Under the pieces are notes generated by a model. The model was not told the origin of the DNA, did no database searches, and worked only from the letters and a program-made list of their open reading frames with translations. From the NCBI GenBank assembly GCA_038888615.1, contig JAWAID010000002.1:461594-525593 (forward strand): 64,000 bases of DNA. Direction: 5' to 3'. This DNA is from Candidatus Korarchaeum sp. Lineage in GTDB: Archaea > Korarchaeota > Korarchaeia > Korarchaeales > Korarchaeaceae. Both the position numbers and the translations under genes were made by a program. Positions 7,610-48,386 of the stretch are shown piece after piece (the stretch's first letter is position 1; each line of letters starts with the position of its first letter).

Positions 7610-10177
7610 ATGGGTGAGGTGATGAGGTACTCATCACTCCTCACCATCCTGCTAGCTCTCCAGGTAGCTCTTCCGTTGAGCGTTGCACTCGGATCACCGA
7701 GTGAAGGATACGCGGGCCTGGGCGCCCTCAGGAATGGAGGGAAGCTCCTGCTCTTCAAGCCGGGCCTACCGGGGGATCCGGTAGCTTTAATACCGCTGAA
7801 CGGTGGGAAAACGCTCCTAGTAGTCTCCTCCGACGGCACCATAACTTACATGGACTCCAACTCCGCCTTAAGGACGCTCAGCGTGTGCGCGGGGAGGCAG
7901 GTCAGGATCGCTCACGCCAGCACGCGGAGCGGGGGAGCTGCCTACGCCATATGCTACAGCAGGGAGAGGGGAGTGGCCTCCTTCGTCACAATAATGGATA
8001 GCGGGGGCTTCAAGTTCTTCGGGCTCGCGGAAGTCTCGAGGAGGGACTCCTCAGGAGGTTTCGTCTACTCGGAGTACAGGACGGACTTCCCGACGGTGAT
8101 GGAACCCCCCACCCCCTTGGTAGCTGATGTGGATGGGGATGGGTACGATGAGGCCCTGGTGTACCTGGATAAGCAGCTTCTCTACGTGGACTCACCCTTC
8201 GGGGAGCCCGAGGCCTACTCCATCTACGAAACTCCCTTAGGCTTCGCTTTCGGCGACTTAGACGGAGACGGTAGGAAGGAAGTGGTGATGGCCTCCCACT
8301 CCGGCATACTCCTCTGGAGGCGCGGGGAGCTCAGGACTTACTCCTCGCAGGCCTGCTCCTCAGCTCCCCTGCTAGCTGACTTCGACGGCGATGGCAAGCT
8401 CGAGGTGGCTTGCTACCGCGGCGACACGCTTCAGGTGATCAAGGGAAACTCGCTGTTACTGAGAGCTGAGGGAGGAGTCACTGAGCCGGTCGCAGCTGAC
8501 CTGAACGGTGATGGTAGGCCGGAGCTGATCTACGTAATGAGGGACGGGACCCTCGTCGCCAGGTCGATTGGCGGTGTGCTCTGGAGGGCCAAGGTGGAGG
8601 CCCCCTACAACAGGGTAGCCGTAGCTGATGTCGATGGGGACCTCAAGCCCGAGGTGGTAGCGGCCTGCGGTCAGTACCTCTACTGCTTCTCTTACGAGGG
8701 CAAGGAGGAGTGGAGGTTGAGCTTGAGGGAGCCCAACGGTTGGGTCTCAGGCGGCTCCTTGACCTTCCAGACTTACGTGAGGTTCGAGGCGAAGACGCCT
8801 CCCGTTCTGCTGGACTTCGATAAGGACGGCTTGCTTGAGGTCATCTTGGGCATAGGGGCCTACTTGGAGCAGGGAAGGGTGGCTCTGGTGGACGAGGTGG
8901 CCGGAGCGGGTGAACCCCCGAGGGTGGAGGTGCTCCAGCCCTCCAACTACACGAAGGTCGGTAGGTACTTCAACTTGAGCTTCAGGGTGATGGATGACCT
9001 CTCGAGCGTGCTCAAGGCCAAGGTGAGCGTTTACTCAAACGGATGGGTTGAGATCTGGAGCAGTGAGGTCAAGTCAGGCGATACCGTGAGGAAAGAATTA
9101 CCCTCATCCGAGAGCGTGATGATAGAGGCTTCGGACGGTCTCCTAACATCCAAAGTGATCCTGAAGCTCAGGGTGGATACTGAACCTCCTAAGATGTTGA
9201 TAGAGCCGAGGAACATGTCCAAGATAGGGCCTGGGACGAACATAACGGTGAGGATAGTGGCGCCGATAGAAGAGTACGCCTTCCTCACGGTGCTTCACGG
9301 AACGGGAGGCCAGTGGTCCAGGATCCTCGAGAGGAGGGTCTGGAAGACCTCCCTGGTGAGCATAGACGTCACCCCGATAGTGAAGCTGGTGAGCGGTTAC
9401 CACTGCTTCAAGTTCGTCCTCAAGGATAGGTACGGCAACACGGAGGAGGTGATGATGCGGTACTCCGTGAGCAAGTCCGCCGAAATTAATCCCTCCAAGG
9501 AGGGAAAGTTATCCTTAAGAGTGCCAAACGGAGCTGTCTCAGGGGTTGCTAAGATCTCCTGGTCTCTGGAGAACGTGGACAGGGCTTCCCTCTACTACGG
9601 AAGCGGTGCTGAGTGGAACCTGATCAGGGAGGTGGAGGGTAACGGGAGCATCGAGTGGGACGTCTCATCTCTCCCCGATGGCGATTACTCACTTAAGCTC
9701 GAGTCAGGGGAGCTAAGGGCCCTGGCGCACCTTAGGGTGGACAACACACCGCCTGAGATAGAGGTGAGGGTGGATAGGGAGGTCCTGAGGGTGGGTGATG
9801 TGGCTACCGTGAGGGTGAGCGGGGAGTTCGAGAGGCTTTACTGGGATCTGGACGGTGACGGTCGCTTCGAGACCCTCGGGCCTCCCGAGGCGAGGATAGA
9901 GGCGAGGGAACCGGGGTTCATCAGGCTAGGCGTGATGGCCGTGGATGAGGCGAACAACACGGTTAAGCGCGAGATCTCGCTCAAGGTCGAGGAGAGGTTA
10001 GAGGTCCAGCGGGAGGCGGAGATCAACGAAGCAGATCCCGGGCCGAGCGGCCCCTTGGACCTCGGAGCCCTGGTTAGACCGGAGCTGGTGCTGCCCGTGA
10101 CGGGCATCTTAGCTGCGGCGATCCTTAAAAGCGGGAGGAGGGGAGGGAGGAAGAGGAGGTCGAACCCTTGGAGGTGA
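7610..10177 (+). CDS. Secreted FG-GAP/VCBS-repeat surface protein with C-terminal anchor
   Basis: An 855-residue exported protein. An N-terminal hydrophobic signal (LLTILLALQVALPLSVALG) is followed by six calcium-binding FG-GAP motifs, for example DVDGDGYDEALVY, DLDGDGRKEVVMA, DFDGDGKLEVACY and DLNGDGRPELIYV, forming an integrin-like beta propeller. The second half looks like Ig/PKD-type beta domains, one with DLDGDGRFETLG. A transmembrane segment near residues 825-842 and a basic tail anchor it to the membrane. It is probably a cell-surface adhesion or sensing protein. The start may be ATG 7622 rather than 7610. It overlaps the next gene by 10 nt. Confidence 0.85.
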   Translation: MGEVMRYSSLLTILLALQVALPLSVALGSPSEGYAGLGALRNGGKLLLFKPGLPGDPVALIPLNGGKTLLVVSSDGTITYMDSNSALRTLSVCAGRQVRIAHASTRSGGAAYAICYSRERGVASFVTIMDSGGFKFFGLAEVSRRDSSGGFVYSEYRTDFPTVMEPPTPLVADVDGDGYDEALVYLDKQLLYVDSPFGEPEAYSIYETPLGFAFGDLDGDGRKEVVMASHSGILLWRRGELRTYSSQACSSAPLLADFDGDGKLEVACYRGDTLQVIKGNSLLLRAEGGVTEPVAADLNGDGRPELIYVMRDGTLVARSIGGVLWRAKVEAPYNRVAVADVDGDLKPEVVAACGQYLYCFSYEGKEEWRLSLREPNGWVSGGSLTFQTYVRFEAKTPPVLLDFDKDGLLEVILGIGAYLEQGRVALVDEVAGAGEPPRVEVLQPSNYTKVGRYFNLSFRVMDDLSSVLKAKVSVYSNGWVEIWSSEVKSGDTVRKELPSSESVMIEASDGLLTSKVILKLRVDTEPPKMLIEPRNMSKIGPGTNITVRIVAPIEEYAFLTVLHGTGGQWSRILERRVWKTSLVSIDVTPIVKLVSGYHCFKFVLKDRYGNTEEVMMRYSVSKSAEINPSKEGKLSLRVPNGAVSGVAKISWSLENVDRASLYYGSGAEWNLIREVEGNGSIEWDVSSLPDGDYSLKLESGELRALAHLRVDNTPPEIEVRVDREVLRVGDVATVRVSGEFERLYWDLDGDGRFETLGPPEARIEAREPGFIRLGVMAVDEANNTVKREISLKVEERLEVQREAEINEADPGPSGPLDLGALVRPELVLPVTGILAAAILKSGRRGGRKRRSNPWR

Positions 10178-10824
10178 GTGATGAGGCTGAGGAGCTGGGG
10201 ATATTCGTGGCTTATGGGATCCTGAGGGAGGTGAGGATCTCAAGGAGCTCAGATGTCTTGGAGAGGTCTGCTGGGGAAGTGAGGAAGCTGTACGACCTCG
10301 AGAAGCTCAAGGACCACCCTGTAGCTAGGGCTTACAGGGACTTCTACTGGAGGATAGGCATAGATCCGACGAAGGTCAGGCCGAGCGGCGAGGCCCTGGT
10401 GAGGAGGATCCTGAGGGGGGAGAGGATACCCTCGATAAACAGCGTGGTCGACTCGGGCAACGCCGCTAGCGCTCTGACGCTCATACCGATAGGGCTCTAC
10501 GATCTGAGTAGGGTAGTCGGGAAGCTGGAGTTGAGGTTAGCGAGGCCTGGGGAAGTATTTTATCCAATAGGAGGAAGCGAGAGGAAACTGAAGGGAGGGG
10601 AACCGGTACTAGCTGATGAGATAGGGCCTATCTTCCTCTACCCACACAGGGATAGCGAGAGGACAAAGGTGAGGGAGGATACCGATGAGGTCCTCGTGGT
10701 GGCAGCCGGGGTTCCGGGTGTGGAGAGGTCCGACGTGAGGAGGGCCCTCAACCTAGCCTTGGAGCTCATAAGGGAGACCTCGGGTGGTGAGCTGATTCAC
10801 TCAGGAACAGCGCCGACCCGATAG
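10168..10824 (+). CDS. B3/4-domain protein (PheRS beta-like)
   Basis: A 218-residue stand-alone B3/4 domain, the module used by phenylalanyl-tRNA synthetase beta for editing (COG3382 class). Family-like segments are HPVARAYRDFYWRIGIDPTK, RPSGEALVRRIL, IPSINSVVDSGN and a C-terminal DEVLVVAAGVPGV. Free-standing members are proposed to clear mis-charged tRNA or bind amino acids, which is unproven here. A TTG start with GGAGGT 8 nt upstream places it overlapping the surface-protein gene, so the two are probably co-transcribed. Confidence 0.85.
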   Translation: MEVSDEAEELGIFVAYGILREVRISRSSDVLERSAGEVRKLYDLEKLKDHPVARAYRDFYWRIGIDPTKVRPSGEALVRRILRGERIPSINSVVDSGNAASALTLIPIGLYDLSRVVGKLELRLARPGEVFYPIGGSERKLKGGEPVLADEIGPIFLYPHRDSERTKVREDTDEVLVVAAGVPGVERSDVRRALNLALELIRETSGGELIHSGTAPTR

Positions 10825-21727: not shown

Positions 21728-22929
21728 GTGAGCTACAGAGCTTACAGCATCAAGCATAACTATAATATTTCAGAGTTCCTAGAAGCGTACAGACTACTGC
21801 TTCAGAGGGCTTTGGATGAGATATGGGCTGCGATTGTATGGAAGCAAGATGGACGCAACCCAGCAGTAAATCCAATAATACCCAAAAGTAATGAGTTCAA
21901 GAAGCAGTTAAGGGATAAGTTAATGGAGGATTGGGGTTATTCGAAGCACTACGTTGACTCGGCCATAAGGGAGGCTTACAGCCTCCTGAAATCCTGGAGG
22001 AGGAACTATAGAAGGGGGAGAAGAAAGGAGAAGCCCATTATAAAGAAAAGGTTCGTTAGGGTAAAGGGAACGCTTTACAGCTACAGAGGAGGATAAAGAT
22101 AAGCGTAAGGCCCTTCAAGGAATATTTGGTTTTCGATATCTCGAGGGCCTGGTTCTCGAGGAGGGTAAAGGGTGGGGAGCTGGGAGAGCTCATATTAAAA
22201 GAGAAATATCTAACGATAACATTCAGGTTCGAAGAAAGTGAGGGGCAAGCGATTGGGAGGATAGCATGGGACTGCAATTTGAAGAGCTTGGATGGCTTCA
22301 ATCCAGAGCTGGGATGGATCAGGATCGATTTAGGAAAGCTCTTTCATATCCACAGGGTCTATGAATTAAAGAGGGGGAGGCTGCAGTCTAAGGTATCCAA
22401 GAAGCCCTCCCTCAAGAGGATTTTAGCTAAATACTCGAGGAGGGAGAGGGACAGAGCTAAAGACTTCGTTCACAAGCTGACCACTTCCCTCTCTAGGGAG
22501 TATAAAGGTTACATACATGGCTTCGAGGATTTGAGGAAGGAGGGGATGTTCAAAAAAGGGAAGAGAGCTAAAAAGCATAATAGAGAAATTGCGAAGAGCG
22601 ATTGGAAGATCATACAATCTCTTATGTCATATAAATCGAGGGTTGTGTTCCTCAACCCGAAGGATTCGAGTAGGAGGTGCTCCAGATGTGGGAAGATCAA
22701 TGCCCCGAAAGGAGCGATTTACAAATGCAGATGCGGGTTGAGGATAGATAGGCAGCTTAACGCTGCCGTAAATTTGTACCTTCAGATGGAGGGACTTTCT
22801 CCGAGCCCAAAGCTCTTTGAGGAGCTGATGAGGGCTTGGAGCGGGTTCACCCTGACGGGGGAGGAGGCCGATGATCGGGAGGCTGATGAGTCCCAAGGGC
22901 TAAGTACGAATATACTTATCCGTACTTAG
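21728..22929 (+). pseudogene. tnpB: TnpB RNA-guided nuclease homologue, one frameshift
   Basis: The N-terminal frame (21728-22096) has the helical wedge/REC region (YRLLLQRALDEIWAAIVWKQ, LKSWRRNYRRGRRKEKPIIK) and stops after YSYRGG; the next frame resumes at once as KISVRPFKEYLVFDISRA. A single -1 shift at GGAGGA near 22088-22094 breaks it. In the second part all three RuvC acids appear kept: WDCNLKSLDG, FEDLRKEG, and RIDRQLNAAVN after a CSRCG...CRCG zinc ribbon. It was therefore active recently, or the shift is an error or is bypassed. Confidence 0.85.
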
Positions 22930-26753: not shown

Positions 26754-27251
26754 ATGGTGAGGAGATCCGAGGAGCTTCGTGTGGATGAACGCTTCAGAGG
26801 GGTCATAGAATACGTGCTATCCGAGCTGGAGAGGCTCCTCGGTGATGACCTGATATCGGTCGTTCTCTTCGGAAGCGTCGCTAGAGGGGACTTCAGGGAG
26901 GGAAGCGATATAGATATACTTGTGGTCGCGAGGAGCTTTCCGAAGAGCTACTCAAGGAGGATAAGCCTTCTGGTACCGATAGCTGAGGGAGCCAGGCGGA
27001 GGGCCCCCGAGCACCCCATCCAGTTCTACCCGCTGAGGGTCGATGAGGCATCCAAGACCAGGCCGATATACCTGGACCTTCTGACGGACTCGATAATACT
27101 CTACGATAGGGATGGCTTCATGCAGGGTGTGCTGAGGGACCTCTCCGAGAGGCTCGCGAAGCTGGGGGCGAAGAAGGTGAGGCTCGAGGACGGGAGCTGG
27201 ATGTGGGTCCTGAAGCCGGGGTTGAGGGTAGGGGAGGTGATAGACATCTGA
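26754..27251 (+). CDS. MNT-type nucleotidyltransferase
   Basis: 165 residues. SVVLFGSVARGDFREGSDID carries the catalytic signature, and the C-terminal tail (RLAKLGAKKVRLEDGSWMWV) resembles that of the MNT at 18.5 kb. It has a short leader after a strong TATA box. The next gene is a HEPN protein that begins 11 nt after its stop but is broken by a frameshift. Confidence 0.85.
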   Translation: MVRRSEELRVDERFRGVIEYVLSELERLLGDDLISVVLFGSVARGDFREGSDIDILVVARSFPKSYSRRISLLVPIAEGARRRAPEHPIQFYPLRVDEASKTRPIYLDLLTDSIILYDRDGFMQGVLRDLSERLAKLGAKKVRLEDGSWMWVLKPGLRVGEVIDI

Positions 27252-27262
27252 ACACCTACGCC

Positions 27263-27680
27263 ATGGCGAAAGCCTACATAGAGGATGCTGAGCGTTCTTA
27301 CAGGGAGGCAGAGCTAAGTTTAAATGAAAGAGCCTTATCATAGATGTATAAGAAGGGCTCAGGAATGCGTAGAACTTTCCCTTAAGGGAATGCTCCGCCT
27401 CCTCGGGGTCGAGTACCCTAAGTCGCATGATGTCTCCTTGGCCCTCGAGAGAGCCAGGGAGGAGGTCGGCATGCCCGATTGGCTGAGGGATGAGGTGGAG
27501 GATCTGAAGAGGATAAGCATGGATCTCGCGATGAAGAGAGGACCAGCTTTTTATGGCGATGAGAGAGCTTTTATACCACCCGAGAGTCTCTATTCAGAGG
27601 AAGATGCTATTGAAGCCTTAGAAATGGCTCTAAGAACTTTAAAGGCAGCAAAGAGACTTCTTGAAGCCTATGAGAGGTGA
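27263..27680 (+). pseudogene. HEPN-domain gene with one frameshift
   Basis: From ATG 27263 the frame reads MAKAYIEDAERSYREAELS and stops at TAG just past 27340; shifted by one base it continues YHRCIRRAQECVELSLKGML, SHDVSLALERAREEV and FYGDERAFIPPESLYSEED to 27680. Together these give a complete 139-residue HEPN protein. The lesion is near 27337. A downstream start at ATG 27324 (118 residues) would lack the first helix. Confidence 0.7.
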
Positions 27681-27826
27681 CCCATCTCGGGCCGCGGTCC
27701 CTCGGGTACGGCTGTGGATCTCTCGGAGTCACCTTTCAAGCTCTGGGGATCCATGTGGGGGTTTTAGGGTGCTCAAAGTGATGCAATAATGATAGGAACG
27801 TTTTTCAGTTATAACTGCTGAGACAG

Positions 27827-28555
27827 GTGATGCGTAAGGTCGACTTCCATCCCCTCCCGCTCAGGAACCTCTTCAGGCTGATCACCAACCTCAGGGGCAG
27901 CGTGGACCCTGAGGGCGTGAGATCGGTCCTAAAGCTGAGGAGTAAGAGGAGCGTTGATCAATACGTTAGGACAGCGAACTGGATCCTGAGCAAGGTCAAT
28001 GGCTTTAATTCCATCGATGACTTCGCGGAATCCCTGGTGAGGGTCTTAGTAGTGGAGTACGAGCTGAAGGAAGTCCTCGATGAGTTCAAGAGAAGGGCCA
28101 TCCCCCTGACTCCCTCCTCCCTCTCGGCCGCGCTCAAGGTTAGGGGTCGTGACCTGAGTGAGAGCGAGGCGAAAGCGATAATATCGTGGCTCAGGGAAGC
28201 CGGAGCCCTGAAGGAGAGGAGGATTCCCGTGTTAACGCTCTCACTCGAGGAGAGGATATTGGAGGACGTGAGGAGCAGGGGCTCCATCACTTACGCCAGC
28301 TTAAGGAGGAACTACGGTGATAACGCTAAGCTCGTAGTGTTCTCCCTCTGGAAGAAAGGTTTTTTGAGTGTTCCTTCCTTGGAGAAGTACAGGGATCTTC
28401 TCGAGGGCGTAGAAGATCCCGATAAGATACCCGGGGAGCTCAAGGGCAAGGTCTTCGCGAGATGGCAGGACAGGACGAGCGGTGAGATCTACAGCGAGCT
28501 GGTGATCCCCCAGAGGGAGAGGATATCCGCAAGGTGGCAGGATGAGCGAGCGTGA
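27827..28555 (+). CDS. Unknown helical (winged-helix-like) protein, partner of ATPase-nuclease
   Basis: 242 residues, no family recognised. The pattern suggests two or three winged-helix-like units: SVDQYVRTANWILSKV, ESEAKAIISWLREAGALKER with an RRIPVLTLSL strand, and ILEDVRSRGSITYASLRRNY with LVVFSLWKKGFLSV. It has no catalytic motif. It overlaps the following ATPase gene by 14 nt, so the two are almost certainly one functional unit, with this protein perhaps giving DNA recognition. The first ATG pair at 27827/27830 is preceded by GACAGGTG. Confidence 0.6.
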   Translation: MMRKVDFHPLPLRNLFRLITNLRGSVDPEGVRSVLKLRSKRSVDQYVRTANWILSKVNGFNSIDDFAESLVRVLVVEYELKEVLDEFKRRAIPLTPSSLSAALKVRGRDLSESEAKAIISWLREAGALKERRIPVLTLSLEERILEDVRSRGSITYASLRRNYGDNAKLVVFSLWKKGFLSVPSLEKYRDLLEGVEDPDKIPGELKGKVFARWQDRTSGEIYSELVIPQRERISARWQDERA

Positions 28556-30365
28556 TCACCTTCAGCAGTGGGACGAGGTCAGGCAGCTCTACAACTCGTA
28601 CAGGAACCTCCGAATCTCGACCCTGAGGTCCGTGCTGGAGTGCTGGGCCGATAGGAGACCGGTCGAGGAGAGCGTGGAGGTGATGGAGAGGGTCTTTCCG
28701 GGCTTCTGGAAACTCAGATCCACCGCTGAGGGCGTGATCAGCCACCTGGAGTACAGGGATTGGAGAGGATGCATAGTGAACATAGTGGGGGATTACGGCT
28801 CTGGGAAGACGCAGATGGGGTTCATCCTACTCAGGATGATCAGGGATAGGGGGGAGGCTCATGCTAAGATGATCGCGGTGGATCCCTTCACCGACCTGAG
28901 GCGGGAAGTCCTCGAGGAACTTGAGGCGGAAGAGAAGCCCCTCGTTTTGATAGTGGATGAGGTGGATCAGCTCATCTCGGACCTCGAGAGGGGCAAGAGG
29001 GAAAAGGTGGAGGAGGTAGCTGACCTAGCCAGGATGCTGACCGAGGGGAGCTTCAGCAATCCTGCGAGGGGATCGGTCATACTCCTCCTCTCGAAGAAAG
29101 CTAGAAACGCCCTTAGAAGCGATAGATCTCTGAGCAATAGGCTCATGGATAGAGCTAGGGAGTTCTCACTCTCCATGAGTGAGACTGAGAGGGAAAAGGT
29201 AAGCTTGGAGGCTGTTAAGAGGATATTAGCGCTCTGGATGGCGTGTAGGGAGGAGGAACCCTGGCGTGTGCAGCAGTACTTCCACGTGCTGTACCCTTTC
29301 ATGGAGAGGCTCGCCCTGGAACTGAGCGATACGCATGAGATAGGGGGCGTGGTGAAGAACCTGACCATAGCGTTGGAGGAGGTCATGCTGAACCTCAGGT
29401 ACGCCCCTCCCATCGGGCGGGTTGAGGAGGGGAGGTTCTTCGAGGACCTCCTCAAGCGGTTCCTCAAGGAGATGATCGGGAAGGTCCCCTTCAAGGTCAG
29501 GATAGGGGAGGAAGCGAGGGAATATCTCGCTGTTTTCTCCGATGAGCCTTTGAGCGTCCCCGGAGCTAGGACCGATGCCCACTACGATATCTGGACCTCC
29601 ACAAGGGGTCTCAGGGGCAACCTCCTGGTGAATCGGGTGGGCGTCGAGATCAAGTACGGTGAGTACTGGAGGGAGAACAGGGACCAGCTCCTCAGGGTGA
29701 TGGAGAGGCACCCCCTGCTCCTCCTATGCGTGGCCGATATGGACCCCGATGAGGTGATGGCCCTGAAGGTCGAGATGAGGGCTGGCGGAAGGGCCTTCGA
29801 CATGATAAACGCGGATCCGAAGGTGCTGAGGGTGGCCTACGTGATGACGGAGGAGGGCGCCCTGAGGTTCCTGAGGGACTGGGGGAAGTTCGATAGGGAC
29901 GTTGAGGAGGCTATGAGCACGATATCAATCCAGTCATTGAGGGTAGAGGATAAGGAGGTCAGTGAGCGTGACTTAGTAGCTCAGGCATCTTCCAGCATAC
30001 TGGCTTCAGTTATAAGAGACCTGAGAAAGGCTAAGAAGTCCGTTAGGACTTCTACTCTATCCGGGATCATAGGCAGGAGCGTGCAGGGGGTTTACGCTAA
30101 GTACGGCAAGGCCCCTCCCGAGGTACCTGAGCATCTGATCTTCAGGGTGCTGAGGGTGCTCGAGCGGGAGGGACTGGGGAGGCTGAGTGACACGGGTAAG
30201 ACGTTCAGCCTGGATAGGGAGTCGAAGCAGAATATAGAGGAAGTTTCATCGAACGATGAGAGGAGGAAGATGATCGAGGCCGTGATCTCGGAGATACTCC
30301 TGCGGGTTCACGAGCATCCACTCAAGCTCGATGCCACTCAGCCCTTGGAGAGTGATCATACTTGA
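28542..30365 (+). CDS. P-loop ATPase with probable PD-(D/E)XK nuclease domain
   Basis: A 607-residue protein. Walker A IVGDYGSGKT is at 81-90, Walker B LVLIVDEVD at 134-142, and RGSVILLLSKKARNAL behind it looks like a sensor strand, so the first 290 residues form an AAA-like ATPase. At 300-385 the order Glu301...HYDIW (Asp349)...GVEIKYG (Glu369-x-Lys371)...Gln382 fits a PD-(D/E)XK nuclease core. The last 150 residues look like a winged helix (SVQGVYAKYGK, FRVLRVLEREGLGRL). I know no named system with this layout; the GDYGSGKT loop recalls ATPases of BREX-type loci. It is coupled to the upstream unknown gene and overlaps the MFS gene by 4 nt. Confidence 0.65.
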   Translation: MSERDHLQQWDEVRQLYNSYRNLRISTLRSVLECWADRRPVEESVEVMERVFPGFWKLRSTAEGVISHLEYRDWRGCIVNIVGDYGSGKTQMGFILLRMIRDRGEAHAKMIAVDPFTDLRREVLEELEAEEKPLVLIVDEVDQLISDLERGKREKVEEVADLARMLTEGSFSNPARGSVILLLSKKARNALRSDRSLSNRLMDRAREFSLSMSETEREKVSLEAVKRILALWMACREEEPWRVQQYFHVLYPFMERLALELSDTHEIGGVVKNLTIALEEVMLNLRYAPPIGRVEEGRFFEDLLKRFLKEMIGKVPFKVRIGEEAREYLAVFSDEPLSVPGARTDAHYDIWTSTRGLRGNLLVNRVGVEIKYGEYWRENRDQLLRVMERHPLLLLCVADMDPDEVMALKVEMRAGGRAFDMINADPKVLRVAYVMTEEGALRFLRDWGKFDRDVEEAMSTISIQSLRVEDKEVSERDLVAQASSSILASVIRDLRKAKKSVRTSTLSGIIGRSVQGVYAKYGKAPPEVPEHLIFRVLRVLEREGLGRLSDTGKTFSLDRESKQNIEEVSSNDERRKMIEAVISEILLRVHEHPLKLDATQPLESDHT

Positions 30366-31684: not shown

Positions 31685-32722
31685 TTATTGTTTGAGGAGG
31701 GATATCCCACTGGGGCACCTTATCCTGACCGCCACCTTCTCCCAGAGCCTGAACAGGTGCAAGCCATCCTCAGGACCTATGTAATCCAGCTCGGTGTCGG
31801 CCCCCACCACGAGGTCCAGCACCTGGGGATTGGAGGATATTAGTAGGGCCTCGTCGTCCTTCAGAGCAGGCAGGGCCACTACATCGCTCACCAAGGCCTT
31901 CAACCTCTGGAGCTCCATTACGCCGGTGCGCTCGTGCACCGAGATGAGCTTAGCGTACCTAGAGGGGCTGACGAGGAGCAAATAAGGCTGGGGTAGTCCG
32001 TCAGCTATCATCCTGCTTAAGGCAGTTGCTACCTCAGATACGGCGGATCCCGGCTCGTCCCAGGACGAGATCCTCTCCGTCCTCCCTGCCTTCTCCTTTA
32101 TCTCTCTCAGAAGAACCCTTTCCTCCTCCATCGAGAGCTCCGTTGCCGCAGCCAAGGCTGGGGATACGTCCAGAGCGCCTGAGACCTTAGCGTGATCTAT
32201 AGAAGCTTGGCTTATGGCGAAGACCCGGCTCAGTTCCTCTAGCTGAATAACGTATCTCCTCACCGGCTTCAGATCGCTGGAGACCTCCTCAACGGGCACG
32301 GCATCGATGCCCCTGCCGACTCGGACAGTAGGGAGGTAGTTCCTCAGCTTCCTCAAGCCCTCGGCGTACCTCCTGACCTCGCCCCTCAGGTAGGACCACT
32401 CATCCACCTGCCCCGAGGGCGGGTCCTCTAAAGCGATCCCAGTGAGCTTAGAGACCTCCTCAGCTCCAGCAGCTAGTTCCTCGACCTGTTCCTGATCCAG
32501 GGACTTTAACAGGGATAGGAACTCCCCTATGTGGGTCTTCTCCTCCTTAGCTATATCCTCGAAGACCTTCTTAGCGGCTTGGTCATCCGTGCAGCTCGCT
32601 AACTGGAGGTAGAGATTTACAGCATCGAGCTCCGCTATTATACTCAATCTGAGGGCTTGCGCAAGCTCCTCCCTGGTTAACTTCCTCCCCGAAGGGAGCT
32701 CAATGGGGTTCTTGCTCAGCAT
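31685..32722 (-). CDS. Encapsulin with fused N-terminal ferritin-like domain
   Basis: 345 residues, the same length and order as the P. furiosus virus-like-particle protein. Residues about 15-80 are a ferritin-like domain with Glu31 (AELDAVNLY) and a DIAKEEKTH segment (Glu60/61, His64) as metal ligands. From about 105 the HK97-type shell follows, with SSWDEPGSAVSEVATAL, LLLVSPSRYAKLISVHERTG and LDLVVGADTELDYIG as landmarks. It should self-assemble into a protein shell with iron-storing activity inside. No separate cargo is adjacent. It is convergent with the MFS gene. Confidence 0.93.
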   Translation of the reverse strand: MLSKNPIELPSGRKLTREELAQALRLSIIAELDAVNLYLQLASCTDDQAAKKVFEDIAKEEKTHIGEFLSLLKSLDQEQVEELAAGAEEVSKLTGIALEDPPSGQVDEWSYLRGEVRRYAEGLRKLRNYLPTVRVGRGIDAVPVEEVSSDLKPVRRYVIQLEELSRVFAISQASIDHAKVSGALDVSPALAAATELSMEEERVLLREIKEKAGRTERISSWDEPGSAVSEVATALSRMIADGLPQPYLLLVSPSRYAKLISVHERTGVMELQRLKALVSDVVALPALKDDEALLISSNPQVLDLVVGADTELDYIGPEDGLHLFRLWEKVAVRIRCPSGISLLKQ

Positions 32723-44817: not shown

Positions 44818-47328
44818 CTACATCCTCTCCCAGGCCCTCTCAGGAGGGCTCACCGATTTGGACGGGAGGGCCACTACCTCCACCTCCACCTGCACCGGGA
44901 ACGGGACGCTGCTTCCCATCCCCCAGATGAGGGCCTCGTGATCGGATAACATGGGTAGGTAGTATTGAATGTCCTCGACCTCCGTGTACTTAGCTATGGC
45001 TTCCTGATCGTTCCCGTTCCTCAACCTGAAAGCTACAACCGTATTAGCCTGACTTATGATGCTCTTGCTCACGTAAGCGGGTCTCTGCGTAACCACTATG
45101 AACCCCAGGTTGTAACCACCGGCCTGGCTTATCGCCTCTATCAATGACTGAGCGGTCCCTACCTCGTAGGGGTCCCCTACTATCGAGAACCCCCTCTCGG
45201 GGATGAGGTACTGAGCTTCCTCTATCACCACTATCAGCGCGAAGTCCCCTTCCCTCTTCCTAGAGATAGCGTAGCTCGCTAACTCCTCAACAACGCTCTT
45301 AACCGTGAGGAACTGCTCCTCATACCTCCTATCGGATGAGAAATCGAGTATCACTAAGGGGTTCCTCCTGACCTCCTCGACCACGCTAAGCCCCCCTCCT
45401 GAGTCGAGTTTCTGAGCTTCCCTCCTCAGCCTGGACTCCATCTCGGCAGCCATGGAGGGCTTGACCCTCATCTCCCTAGCGATCCTCCTGAGGGACCTCA
45501 GGGCCTGCTCTAAATCGCCCTCAGCCTCCCTCAGGGCGGAGGTGAGGATCCTGTAGGAGAGCGTCCCCGCTTTGTAACCTAGCCTCCTGGCTATGGAGTG
45601 GGGACTCATCGATCTCACGTTCGGTAGGAAGGAGGAATAATCGTAAACGACCCCTCCCTTAGCTGTTAGCCTCTCGTACTCCCCCCTCCTATCGAGCACG
45701 AGGAACCGAGGCCTCGGCTTGAGCTCGGAGGCCTTCGCTATCAAGCTGGCTACGAAGCTGCTATTATGGACGAAAGCACCGTTAGCCAGGAAGCTCTGGG
45801 TCTCGGGGACATCTAGGTCGTAAACGTACTTGGTGTTCGTGTAAACCTTCCTCACGCTCACTACCCTCTCCAAGTTAACGGAAGCCTTGTAGATCAATCC
45901 CTCCCTCTTCGGCAGAGCCCTCACCTGGAGCGATCCCCCATCCATGCCCAGGCTCCTCTCCCCCCAGCTCTCAATACGGTCCATGAGGACCCTCAGGGAG
46001 AGGGGGTCCACCGAGAGGCCCCCGGGGCAGAACCTCAGGGTGGTGACGCCCAGCAGGGAGAGGACCGTTGAGAGAGCGGTGGACCTGCTCTCCCCACAGA
46101 GGATGAGCGAGCTCCCCCTGGTATCGTGGATCGAGCACCTGACTAAGAGCTCCCTGAGCGCTCTGGCCAAGGGGTAGTACCTTCCCCCGATCCCCTCCGT
46201 CTCGGAGGGGAGACTCAAGAGGGATGAGAGACCGTGCGAGACCATCCTAGAGAGCTCCCGCGATCTAACGAATACCCCCTTGTTATCCAGTACCCTGTGC
46301 TCAAGGCCCGCCTCGAGGCAGGCTAGCCTGACATCAGCTATATCGGAATCCATCACGAGGACCCCGTCCTTCATAGCTACTCCCGATGCCAAGGAGAGGC
46401 CCAACAGCCTATCGAAGTAGTGGGGCAATGAGCCCGGCCTCAGCTGAACCCCCCTCGGCACCACTAAGTACTTCTCCCTCATGCCCGCTAGCTTCCTGGG
46501 GTTTACCGCGAACAGGTTGCTCCCATCAGTCACGAGCAAGCTGTGGTCCTCGGTGACCCTGATCCTCCTCCCAACCGAGGTCTCGACTTCGTAGACGTCC
46601 TTATCGAGTGTGTGTCTATAAACTCCAGCTAGCTCGCACCACTTAGGCAGGAAGTCGCTCCCCAAGGAGAGGGTCTCGTAACCCAATCCCCTAAGGTCCA
46701 GTAGGACGTCGTCCTTGACCTCCTTAGGGACCTTGCTCTCGAAGAACTTCTCCACGGGGCCTATGAAGTACTCCCTCCTCTTAGAGTCGTAAATCACTAC
46801 TACGCTATCCCCAGTGACGCTCTTCCCACTTCTAGTCATCCCGGTGACGAACATGTGACCCTTGGCCACCGCAGCGAGGTCTATCGCGAAGGGCACCCTG
46901 GTTCCCCTTATCCTGCCCACCCTCAGGGGGAGCCCCTGGGAGAAGGGGGGTGTGAGGAAGCCGGAGAGCTCCCCGGGCTCGGGTCTCATGACCCTCGAGA
47001 GCGTCGAAGGTGGGGCCTCCAGGGGCCTTATCCTCCCAGACTCGGGATCCCTGTACCCTAGGACCTCACAGTCAGCTATCAGATACTCAAGCTCACTGCT
47101 GTAGTTCGAGATCAACCCTGAACTACTCGCTATCAAACCCGTTTTTCCTAGTTCCACTTCCTCGTTTATCGTCTGTATCTCCTTAACCCTGAGGAATACC
47201 GGAGCTCCTTCCCAGGGATGGTCGATCACGTAGAAATCCCCCAAGGATACCTTCACACCCTTAAGAGCGACGAACATTATTCTTCTGGGTGTGGAGCGGG
47301 AGATCACGTGACCGACGACTTCCCTCAA
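44818..47328 (-). CDS. herA: HerA-type DNA translocase with intein (pair 2)
   Basis: 836 codons, of which residues 170-522 are an intein; the mature HerA is about 483 residues. Extein parts show the HAS-barrel, Walker A TGMTRSGK (162-169) joined after splicing to SSFVASLIAKA, VLDRRGEYERL, LIVVIEEAQYLIP (Walker B) and VVTQRPAYVSKSI. It pumps DNA for NurA and Mre11-Rad50 end resection, and splicing is needed to restore the ATP-binding loop. It overlaps nurA (4 nt). Confidence 0.93.
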   Translation of the reverse strand: MREVVGHVISRSTPRRIMFVALKGVKVSLGDFYVIDHPWEGAPVFLRVKEIQTINEEVELGKTGLIASSSGLISNYSSELEYLIADCEVLGYRDPESGRIRPLEAPPSTLSRVMRPEPGELSGFLTPPFSQGLPLRVGRIRGTRVPFAIDLAAVAKGHMFVTGMTRSGKSVTGDSVVVIYDSKRREYFIGPVEKFFESKVPKEVKDDVLLDLRGLGYETLSLGSDFLPKWCELAGVYRHTLDKDVYEVETSVGRRIRVTEDHSLLVTDGSNLFAVNPRKLAGMREKYLVVPRGVQLRPGSLPHYFDRLLGLSLASGVAMKDGVLVMDSDIADVRLACLEAGLEHRVLDNKGVFVRSRELSRMVSHGLSSLLSLPSETEGIGGRYYPLARALRELLVRCSIHDTRGSSLILCGESRSTALSTVLSLLGVTTLRFCPGGLSVDPLSLRVLMDRIESWGERSLGMDGGSLQVRALPKREGLIYKASVNLERVVSVRKVYTNTKYVYDLDVPETQSFLANGAFVHNSSFVASLIAKASELKPRPRFLVLDRRGEYERLTAKGGVVYDYSSFLPNVRSMSPHSIARRLGYKAGTLSYRILTSALREAEGDLEQALRSLRRIAREMRVKPSMAAEMESRLRREAQKLDSGGGLSVVEEVRRNPLVILDFSSDRRYEEQFLTVKSVVEELASYAISRKREGDFALIVVIEEAQYLIPERGFSIVGDPYEVGTAQSLIEAISQAGGYNLGFIVVTQRPAYVSKSIISQANTVVAFRLRNGNDQEAIAKYTEVEDIQYYLPMLSDHEALIWGMGSSVPFPVQVEVEVVALPSKSVSPPERAWERM
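45763..46821 (-). other. Intein in HerA, inserted in the P-loop
   Basis: A 353-residue intein of Ser-1 type, SVTGDSVVVIYDS at the start (block A), VTEDHSLLV (block B, TxxH), and VYDLDVPETQSFLANGAFVHN-like block F/G ending in His-Asn, followed by Ser of the C-extein. A central 180-residue part would be the homing-endonuclease zone; only LLGLSLASG resembles a LAGLIDADG helix and the second copy is not evident, so homing is probably dead. Confidence 0.92.
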
Positions 47329-48386
47329 TCGCTTTCACCCCTCTGCAGCGAGAATAAGGCGAACCTCTCCGAATCGATCCCCCTGGCCCTAGCCCCGCTT
47401 AAGAGCATCCTATACACCAGGGAAGCCTGTTTGTTAGTGAGCTTAGACAACCTGTCCACGGCTACTATAGGAAGGGGAAGTCCCGTGCTCGGTTCTGAGA
47501 AGGAGTATATCTGGGAGGCTATGGCATGAGCTACTTCCAGCGAGTACTCAGCCAGGTCTATCCTGATCGGGACCCTGCCTCTCCTCAAGAACATGGCCCA
47601 GGGCCTGAAGGAGCTGGCATCCCCCAGGAAGGGAGCCACCTCCTCCCATCCCCCGCTGGCTGGTAGGGGTCCCAGCGCCTCACCCTCCCTCAGCAGGAGG
47701 GAGGAGAGGAGGGAGTCCGGTAGGCTATCCGCGCCGAGCCAGCTGGATATGTAGTGGCTCCTCACCCTCTTGACCACGCCGATCACGTGCTTCCCGGAAG
47801 CCTTGGCCTCCCTGAGCAAGCCGGATAGGGAGCGCAGCGCGGCCTCGTACACCTCCAGGTAACTGGGGGAGTAGATCCTACCCCTGGGGGCGTAGTAGCT
47901 CCTGGGTAAGTAGAGGGGGCCGTCTATGAGCACAAGCTCGCTCTTCCTGAGGAGGATGGAAGCCAAGTTGTACATCAGGTAGTAGCCCATGAGCGACGAT
48001 ACCTTCACGCCCTCCTCCTCATCCAGGCTCGATTGAGGGGGCCTCAGGGTAGCTAGGAGGGGCTCGGATATCCTCAGGCCCCCTATGAACACCGCCCCTA
48101 CGGCCAGGCTCATCGGCTGATAACCTATCAGCAGGTCCTTACCGCTCGAGCCCGAATCGACGGCGGCTACGCGGGAGCTCGTGGCCTCAGCTTTCAGCGA
48201 TGTCAGGGGTAAAAGGTCCCTGAGCTTAGGAGCGATGGCCTCAGCCCTATCTATGAGCTCGATTATGTTTGAGAGGAGGTCCCTTGAGATCTCGCTCAGC
48301 ACCTCGTTGTACTTGCTGTAGGGCCTCACCTCGGGCGCTAGCCTCGATAGGCCAGCCTCACTGAGATCCTCATCTCCTCTTTTCAT
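47325..48386 (-). CDS. nurA: NurA-domain nuclease (pair 2)
   Basis: 353 residues with RVAAVDSGSSGKDLL (catalytic Asp, residues about 72-86), ELVLIDGPLYLP, HVIGVVKRVRSHY and LPIVAVDRLSKL in NurA order. It stands first in a two-gene unit with herA. The N-terminal helical part is about as long as that of pair 1, but the sequences are dissimilar, so the pairs are ancient paralogues. Confidence 0.88.
   Translation of the reverse strand: MKRGDEDLSEAGLSRLAPEVRPYSKYNEVLSEISRDLLSNIIELIDRAEAIAPKLRDLLPLTSLKAEATSSRVAAVDSGSSGKDLLIGYQPMSLAVGAVFIGGLRISEPLLATLRPPQSSLDEEEGVKVSSLMGYYLMYNLASILLRKSELVLIDGPLYLPRSYYAPRGRIYSPSYLEVYEAALRSLSGLLREAKASGKHVIGVVKRVRSHYISSWLGADSLPDSLLSSLLLREGEALGPLPASGGWEEVAPFLGDASSFRPWAMFLRRGRVPIRIDLAEYSLEVAHAIASQIYSFSEPSTGLPLPIVAVDRLSKLTNKQASLVYRMLLSGARARGIDSERFALFSLQRGESD

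What the first reader, a model, noticed from the sequence alone, without database searches (positions are those of the whole stretch)
27827..30365. Two-gene module: winged-helix-like protein plus ATPase fused to a probable PD-(D/E)XK nuclease
The 14-nt overlap shows the two genes are one unit. The ATPase has Walker A and B at residues 81-90 and 134-142, then an E-D-ExK-Q series at 301-382 that fits a PD-(D/E)XK core, then a winged helix. No named system I know has this order. The pair lies directly behind a HerA-NurA operon and an MNT/HEPN pair, the company kept by defence and repair loci. ATPase plus nuclease plus DNA-binding partner suggests a DNA-targeting defence or repair machine.
Basis: partly seen in the sequence, partly recalled or inferred. 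Interest (0 to 1): 0.72.

Follow-up and report, generated by a model that had tools for sequence, protein, structure and literature searches.

The report
ORC-type ATPase-nuclease with wHTH partner
Two overlapping genes confined to Korarchaeum and close relatives encode a DNA-loader-type ATPase carrying a built-in, intact-looking restriction-type nuclease and a dedicated DNA-binding partner, probably a small DNA-cutting surveillance machine of a design so far seen in predicted anti-invader systems.

Summary
Two overlapping genes (A, 242 aa; B, 607 aa) lie at the stated coordinates in a Korarchaeum genome. B is an ORC/Cdc6-like AAA+ ATPase, then a PD-(D/E)XK-type domain, then a C-terminal winged helix (AF2 pLDDT 87). 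A is a chain of helix-turn-helix domains (pLDDT 89). The conserved nuclease residues are E301, D345, E369-x-K371 and Q382. A lies directly before B, overlapping it, at all 13 loci where both can be seen. The family was found only in Korarchaeum and its family: 13 of 16 genus genomes, 2 of 8 others, no full-length match in about 660 other archaea, none in phages, plasmids or viral contigs. The 'company' argument fails: HerA-NurA adjoins the pair in only 2 genomes and MNT/HEPN in one. Divergence tracks the core resolvase Hjc (r = 0.93), so inheritance is mostly vertical. Gene A carries its own conserved promoter-like element. The closest published design is the Orc/CDC6-REase-wHTH ATPase plus multi-wHTH protein of 'HerA/FtsK capture' systems, but there the inserted nuclease is dead and here it looks intact. 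New variant of a known kind; role (defence or genome maintenance) unproven.

The parts
27797..27812 (+). module-specific promoter-like element (AACGTTTTTCAGTTAT; consensus AAACnTTTTTCAGYT); TTTTTCA core at 27801-27807, 29 nt before the ATG of gene A
   Evidence: exact TTTTTCA 26-30 nt before gene A in 10 of 13 loci (TTTTTCC in one more, none in one, weak AT-run in one); found within 50 nt upstream of 5 of 151 sampled ORFs, all five gene A
27827..28555 (+). gene A: 242 aa (241 aa if it starts at ATG 27830), tandem helix-turn-helix / winged-helix protein, presumed DNA-binding partner
   Evidence: AF2 pLDDT 88.8; weak Foldseek matches mostly to tandem winged-helix proteins: SelB WH2-4, UFL1-DDRGK1, Pol III subunit O, FokI at rank 19; no significant Pfam, NCBIfam or PADLOC family
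28542..30365 (+). gene B: 607 aa AAA+ ATPase - PD-(D/E)XK-like nuclease - winged helix
   Evidence: AF2 pLDDT 87.3, pTM 0.85; alignment A1 of 16 homologous sequences
28758..29396 (+). B residues 73-285: AAA+ core and helical lid, ORC/Cdc6-like
   Evidence: Foldseek best matches ORC4, TRIP13, archaeal ORC2/Cdc6, RuvB; hhalign 95.8% probability to BrxC/D-type set over 109 columns
28788..28811 (+). B residues 83-90: Walker A GDYGSGKT
   Evidence: K89 in all homologues that cover it
29412..29816 (+). B residues 291-425: PD-(D/E)XK-like nuclease domain with E301, D345, E369-x-K371, Q382
   Evidence: invariant or nearly invariant residues in the family and in a 26%-identical second copy; secondary-structure order from AF2; not confirmed by a direct fold match
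29952..30317 (+). B residues 471-592: C-terminal winged helix and end helices
   Evidence: AF2 secondary structure H475-496, E500-502, H503-520, H530-542, E554-556

Best explanation
A and B form one machine acting on DNA. A (tandem winged helices) recognises a DNA feature. B is an ORC/Cdc6-type AAA+ ATPase that loads on or assembles around DNA in an ATP-dependent way, using its own C-terminal winged helix, and brings its built-in PD-(D/E)XK nuclease to bear on that DNA. The most likely task is surveillance of foreign or aberrant DNA (restriction-like innate defence), in the manner predicted for the Orc/CDC6-REase-wHTH ATPases of 'HerA/FtsK capture' systems. Here nuclease and ATPase are in one chain with an intact catalytic series, so no separate nuclease, methylase or HerA is required in the unit. 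Shown: gene order, overlap, co-inheritance, residue conservation, own promoter-like element, phyletic range. Inferred: the nuclease fold and activity, DNA binding by A, complex formation, defence role.
For: Always paired and overlapping, and A and B pairwise identities correlate at r = 0.90. B's ATPase matches BrxC/D-type ATPases by hhalign (95.8%, 109 columns; MFS, encapsulin and GcvP controls under 1%; an ABC control matched only 21 P-loop columns). Weak PADLOC matches to mad8, PifA, BrxD and SspC recur across the family. E301/D345/E369-x-K371/Q382 conserved, also in the divergent second copy. AF2 domain order. Published precedent for this domain order plus a multi-wHTH gene in predicted counter-invader systems (PMC10853773). 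Purifying selection, w about 0.07-0.28. A roughly 400-nt mosaic block inside the nuclease half between two close relatives, as in genes under diversifying exchange. In G020 a type IIG restriction enzyme lies about 3 kb away.
Against: Divergence of B tracks the core resolvase Hjc (r = 0.93) and the pair is present in 11 of 12 genus genomes that are at least 90% complete, which looks like a resident lineage function rather than a shuffled defence gene. No defence gene is a constant neighbour. No modification partner is seen. No homologue in plasmids, phages or IMG/VR. The nuclease domain matched no Pfam or PDB profile, and hhalign to Hjc was 0.1% and to DUF234 14%.
Confidence: 0.45

Rival explanations
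1. Chromosome-maintenance machine: the same ATPase-nuclease-wHTH complex processes the cell's own DNA (recombination, end processing, stalled forks or replication control) in Korarchaeum, and is not primarily defence.
For: Vertical co-inheritance with Hjc (r = 0.93); 11 of 12 near-complete genus genomes carry it; base composition follows the host genome; no viral or plasmid homologues; adjacent to HerA-NurA in two genomes.
Against: Absent from near-complete G008 and from most other genera of the family; HerA-NurA link not conserved; evolves much faster than neighbouring metabolic genes (49% against 87-88% identity for GcvPA between window and G010); ATPase nearest to BrxC/D-type proteins.
Confidence: 0.32
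2. Domesticated transposition apparatus: B corresponds to a TnsC-type ATPase fused to a TnsA-type nuclease (PD-(D/E)XK then wHTH), A to a target selector, with the transposase lost.
For: Weak Pfam match to TniB (E = 0.0056); domain order nuclease-then-wHTH as in TnsA (own knowledge); ORC/Cdc6-clade ATPases include Tn7 and Mu ATPases (PMC10853773).
Against: No transposase, integrase or conserved ends recognised at the annotated loci; no tRNA target; long vertical inheritance of the pair.
Confidence: 0.08
3. Nuclease-dead scaffold: the 291-425 domain binds DNA or protein but does not cut, as in published iREase members, and the complex is a regulator or loader.
For: Published relatives carry an inactive REase at exactly this position (PMC10853773); no fold match was obtained for the domain here.
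Against: All catalytic-type residues (E301, D345, E369, K371, Q382) are conserved across the family, including a 26% identical copy, which a dead domain would not need.
Confidence: 0.1

Closest known systems
Orc/CDC6 - iREase - wHTH ATPases with 2-4x wHTH partner in 'HerA/FtsK capture' systems (PMC10853773, NAR 2024)
   Same: ORC/Cdc6-type AAA+ core, REase placed between AAA+ and C-terminal wHTH, neighbouring fast-evolving multi-wHTH gene; in two genomes also a HerA next door
   Different: inserted REase is inactive there but has an intact catalytic series here; no separate active REase; HerA not a constant partner; range confined to Korarchaeum and close relatives
BREX BrxC / BrxD and SspC ATPases (with SspB as triple-wHTH partner)
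   Same: ATPase clade (hhalign 95.8% to a BrxC/D-type set) and, for SspC-SspB, an ATPase plus multi-wHTH pair (PMC10853773)
   Different: no PglZ, methylase or phosphorothioate genes recognised nearby; BrxC and BrxD carry no built-in REase in the published accounts read here
arCOG03166: AAA+ ATPase fused to HTH and RecB nuclease (PMC4158269) and the common archaeal ATPase_2 - wHTH - DUF234 proteins
   Same: archaeal one-chain ATPase + HTH + PD-(D/E)XK-type domain
   Different: the DUF234 proteins read here run ATPase-wHTH-nuclease-like, B runs ATPase-nuclease-wHTH; B's ATPase matches them only weakly (hhalign 5.5%); no obligate wHTH partner was noted for them
TnsA / TnsC of Tn7-like transposons
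   Same: AAA+ ATPase plus nuclease-then-wHTH order (own knowledge)
   Different: no transposase or ends; one fused chain; not tested by profile

Membership tests
Orc/CDC6-REase-wHTH ATPase of HerA/FtsK capture systems | ORC/Cdc6-clade AAA+ ATPase | tested here: met
   Foldseek top matches ORC4, archaeal ORC2, Cdc6 (also TRIP13, RuvB); hhalign to BrxC/D-type set 95.8%. Caveat: the helix-extension-helix insert typical of the clade was not seen; only one helix lies between strands 2 and 3
Orc/CDC6-REase-wHTH ATPase of HerA/FtsK capture systems | REase domain inserted between AAA+ core/lid and C-terminal wHTH | tested here: met
   AF2 secondary structure: lid to 283, nuclease-like 293-424, wHTH 475-556; conserved E-D-ExK-Q. 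Fold not confirmed by a structure match
Orc/CDC6-REase-wHTH ATPase of HerA/FtsK capture systems | inserted REase is inactive | tested here: not met
   catalytic-type residues conserved in all homologues that cover them
Orc/CDC6-REase-wHTH ATPase of HerA/FtsK capture systems | HerA/FtsK in the same neighbourhood | tested here: not met
   immediately upstream in G000 and G011 only; not adjacent in G010, G012 and the rest
Orc/CDC6-REase-wHTH ATPase of HerA/FtsK capture systems | separate active REase gene | tested here: not met
   none recognised at the loci examined; NurA in two loci and a type IIG enzyme in G020 are not constant
[quoted passage not shown]
   A is tandem HTH/wHTH by AF2; FokI appears only at Foldseek rank 19, E = 0.84
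PD-(D/E)XK nuclease superfamily | alpha-beta-beta-beta-alpha-beta core with acidic D/ExK active site | tested here: inconclusive
PD-(D/E)XK nuclease superfamily | metal-dependent DNA cleavage | not testable with these tools
   needs purified protein
BREX (BrxC/BrxD) | BREX partner genes (PglZ, BrxX methylase) | tested here: not met
   absent from the annotated neighbourhoods
Tn7-like TnsA/TnsC | TnsB-type transposase nearby | tested here: not met
   none in the annotated loci

The most novel reading that the evidence does not exclude
A-B is a minimal self-sufficient two-protein immune or surveillance system in which one chain combines an ORC-type DNA-loading ATPase with an active PD-(D/E)XK nuclease, guided by a tandem-winged-helix reader that also controls the module's own promoter element; it would be the catalytically active form of the published Orc/CDC6-iREase design and particular to Korarchaeum and its near relatives.
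Probability: 0.25. Interest if true: 0.65.

Novelty: new variant of a known kind. Interest (0 to 1): 0.42.

Why it matters
If the nuclease is active, this is a compact thermophilic example of an ORC-family ATPase that cuts the DNA it loads on. It would link replication-initiator ATPases to BREX/Ssp-type immunity and give a two-gene system small enough to reconstitute. It also supplies a lineage marker module for Korarchaeum, whose DNA defence and repair are almost unstudied.

Tried and rejected
Family look-ups of A gave nothing significant in Pfam, NCBIfam, PADLOC or PDB. Single-sequence scan of GTDB contigs with B found nothing; the alignment scan found only members already known from the Korarchaeal genomes. 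Viral, plasmid and phage scans were empty. Profile A1 over 390 further archaeal genomes gave only P-loop-sized hits, profile A2 one 44-residue hit. Nuclease-domain profile against PDB and Pfam gave chance hits only. hhalign nuclease vs Hjc failed. Structure library searches with the whole B model were dominated by the AAA+ part, so they do not test the nuclease. Idea that the pair is a mobile island: no tRNA target, no integrase recognised, GC follows the host and divergence follows Hjc, so relocation is put down to ordinary genome rearrangement. Palindrome CAGTTATAACTG (27806-27817) upstream of A looked like an operator but occurs only in the window. Fishing for MADS papers found nothing useful.

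Full report
OBSERVATION. The window lies in a 1.67-Mb genome; a same-genus genome of 1,590,757 bp in one contig has the size of Korarchaeum cryptofilum OPF8 (own knowledge).

FAMILY AND RANGE. B homologues occur in 13 of 16 Korarchaeum-genus genomes (11 of 12 of those at least 90% complete) and in 2 of 8 genomes of other genera of the family. Profile searches of about 270 other archaeal genomes and 390 more gave no full-length match, only short P-loop hits; GTDB contigs gave only Korarchaeal members; IMG/VR, plasmids and phages gave none. Every locus in which the DNA before B is held (13 of 13) has A directly upstream and overlapping. G003 also carries a divergent second ATPase-nuclease copy, split into two ORFs and without an A gene.

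ANATOMY OF B. AF2 on 16 sequences gave pLDDT 87.3. Order: helical N-terminal part with a conserved W-x-DRR motif; AAA+ core and lid (73-285); a domain with element order alpha 293-310, beta 314-321, beta 324-333, beta 346-354, beta 357-372, alpha 381-387, beta 392-397, alpha 402-412, beta 419-424; helices; winged helix 475-556. E301 sits in the first helix, D345 just before a strand, E369-x-K371 near the end of the next strand, Q382 in the following helix: the arrangement expected of PD-(D/E)XK enzymes with the E/Q additions (own knowledge of the superfamily). These residues are among the most conserved of the protein and survive in the 26%-identical second copy. The fold itself is not proven: sequence profiles found no known nuclease, hhalign gave 0.1% with Hjc and 14% over 25 columns with DUF234, and whole-chain Foldseek was dominated by the AAA+ part.

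ATPASE KINSHIP. Foldseek ranks ORC4, TRIP13, archaeal ORC2/Cdc6 and RuvB high. hhalign against a set of archaeal BrxC/D-type ATPases fetched here gives 95.8% over 109 columns; ATPase_2/DUF234 proteins 5.5%; an ABC set only its 21-column P-loop; unrelated controls under 1%. PADLOC models mad8, PifA, BrxD and SspC match weakly but repeatedly across members.

ANATOMY OF A. AF2 pLDDT 88.8: successive helix-turn-helix units (12-56, 80-131, 140-181) and a beta-rich tail. Best but weak structural matches are mostly proteins with tandem winged helices, FokI among them.

EVOLUTION. A and B pairwise identities correlate at 0.90; B with the resolvase Hjc at 0.93 over 11 genomes, so inheritance is mainly vertical. 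dN/dS is about 0.07-0.28 for B and about 0.18-0.22 for A. Between G010 and G012 (about 95% identical DNA) a block of about 400 nt covering B residues about 353-480 falls to roughly 60-87% identity in 30-nt steps, the deepest drop inside a coding region near the module, which suggests exchange with a divergent allele.

NEIGHBOURHOODS. At least eight different settings were seen: HerA-NurA upstream (G000, G011); MFS gene downstream (G000, G005, G010, G011, G012); a PEPCK-like gene upstream (G001, G007, G015); ABC exporter downstream (G001, G006, G009, G015); glycosyltransferase and cell-surface-type genes (G014); UbiD/UbiA (G003); radical-SAM and type IIG restriction enzyme (G020); dehydrogenases (G002); flavodiiron-like gene (G022). 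The window's own HerA-NurA has its orthologue more than 100 kb from A-B in G010. The genome has further NurA/HerA loci, so this one is not the only copy.

OWN PROMOTER ELEMENT. Ten of 13 A genes have TTTTTCA 26-30 nt before the start codon, mostly inside AAACnTTTTTCAGYT, although the surrounding flanks differ; of 151 sampled ORFs only five, all gene A, have it within 50 nt upstream (Fisher p about 1e-13, ignoring the relatedness of some loci). The position suits an archaeal promoter or an operator over it; A itself may bind it (inference).

CLOSEST KNOWN. [quoted passage not shown] A-B shares the layout of B and very likely the kind of A, but its inserted nuclease looks intact, no second REase is present, and HerA is not constant. 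So it is not filed as a member; it works like one, as a new variant. The same paper notes that CDC6/ORC-clade NTPases with C-terminal REases are a broad effector class.

ROLE. Most likely: ATP-driven loading and cleavage or processing of DNA selected by A. Defence is favoured slightly over genome maintenance because of the ATPase kinship, the published analogues and fast evolution; vertical inheritance and near-universality in the genus argue the other way. The steps shown are gene pairing, conservation, range and promoter element; nuclease activity, DNA binding and role are inferred.

Noticed in passing
window 31685-32722 (-): Ferritin-like domain fused to an encapsulin shell protein (Linocin_M18 plus rubrerythrin/EncFtn-like); it also lies near the A-B pair in G005, G010, G011 and G012.
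   Followed up: partly
window 44818-48386 (-): A second HerA-NurA operon in the same window, whose HerA carries an intein (PF14890); a protein of similar length sits at the matching place in G010 (830 aa).
   Followed up: partly
window 21728-22929 (+): TnpB / OrfB_IS605-like gene apparently in two adjacent pieces (122 and 267 aa), upstream of the first HerA-NurA.
   Followed up: no
window 26754-27680 (+): MNT nucleotidyltransferase and HEPN gene pair between NurA and gene A; absent from the same place in the nearest relative G011, so a recent arrival or loss.
   Followed up: partly
window 27806-27817: Perfect 12-nt palindrome CAGTTATAACTG overlapping the promoter-like element of gene A; not found in other genomes.
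   Followed up: yes
L025 812-2500 (-): A divergent second ATPase-nuclease copy in G003, about 26% identical in the nuclease part, split into two ORFs and lacking an A gene.
   Followed up: partly
L020 about 10150-10570: Mosaic block of strongly lowered identity (about 72-85% in 150-nt steps) inside otherwise about 95% identical DNA between G010 and G012, within the nuclease half of B.
   Followed up: partly
L100-L103: Separate 459-474 aa BrxC/D-like ATPases in G001, G003, G014 and G020; on other contigs than the A-B pair.
   Followed up: no
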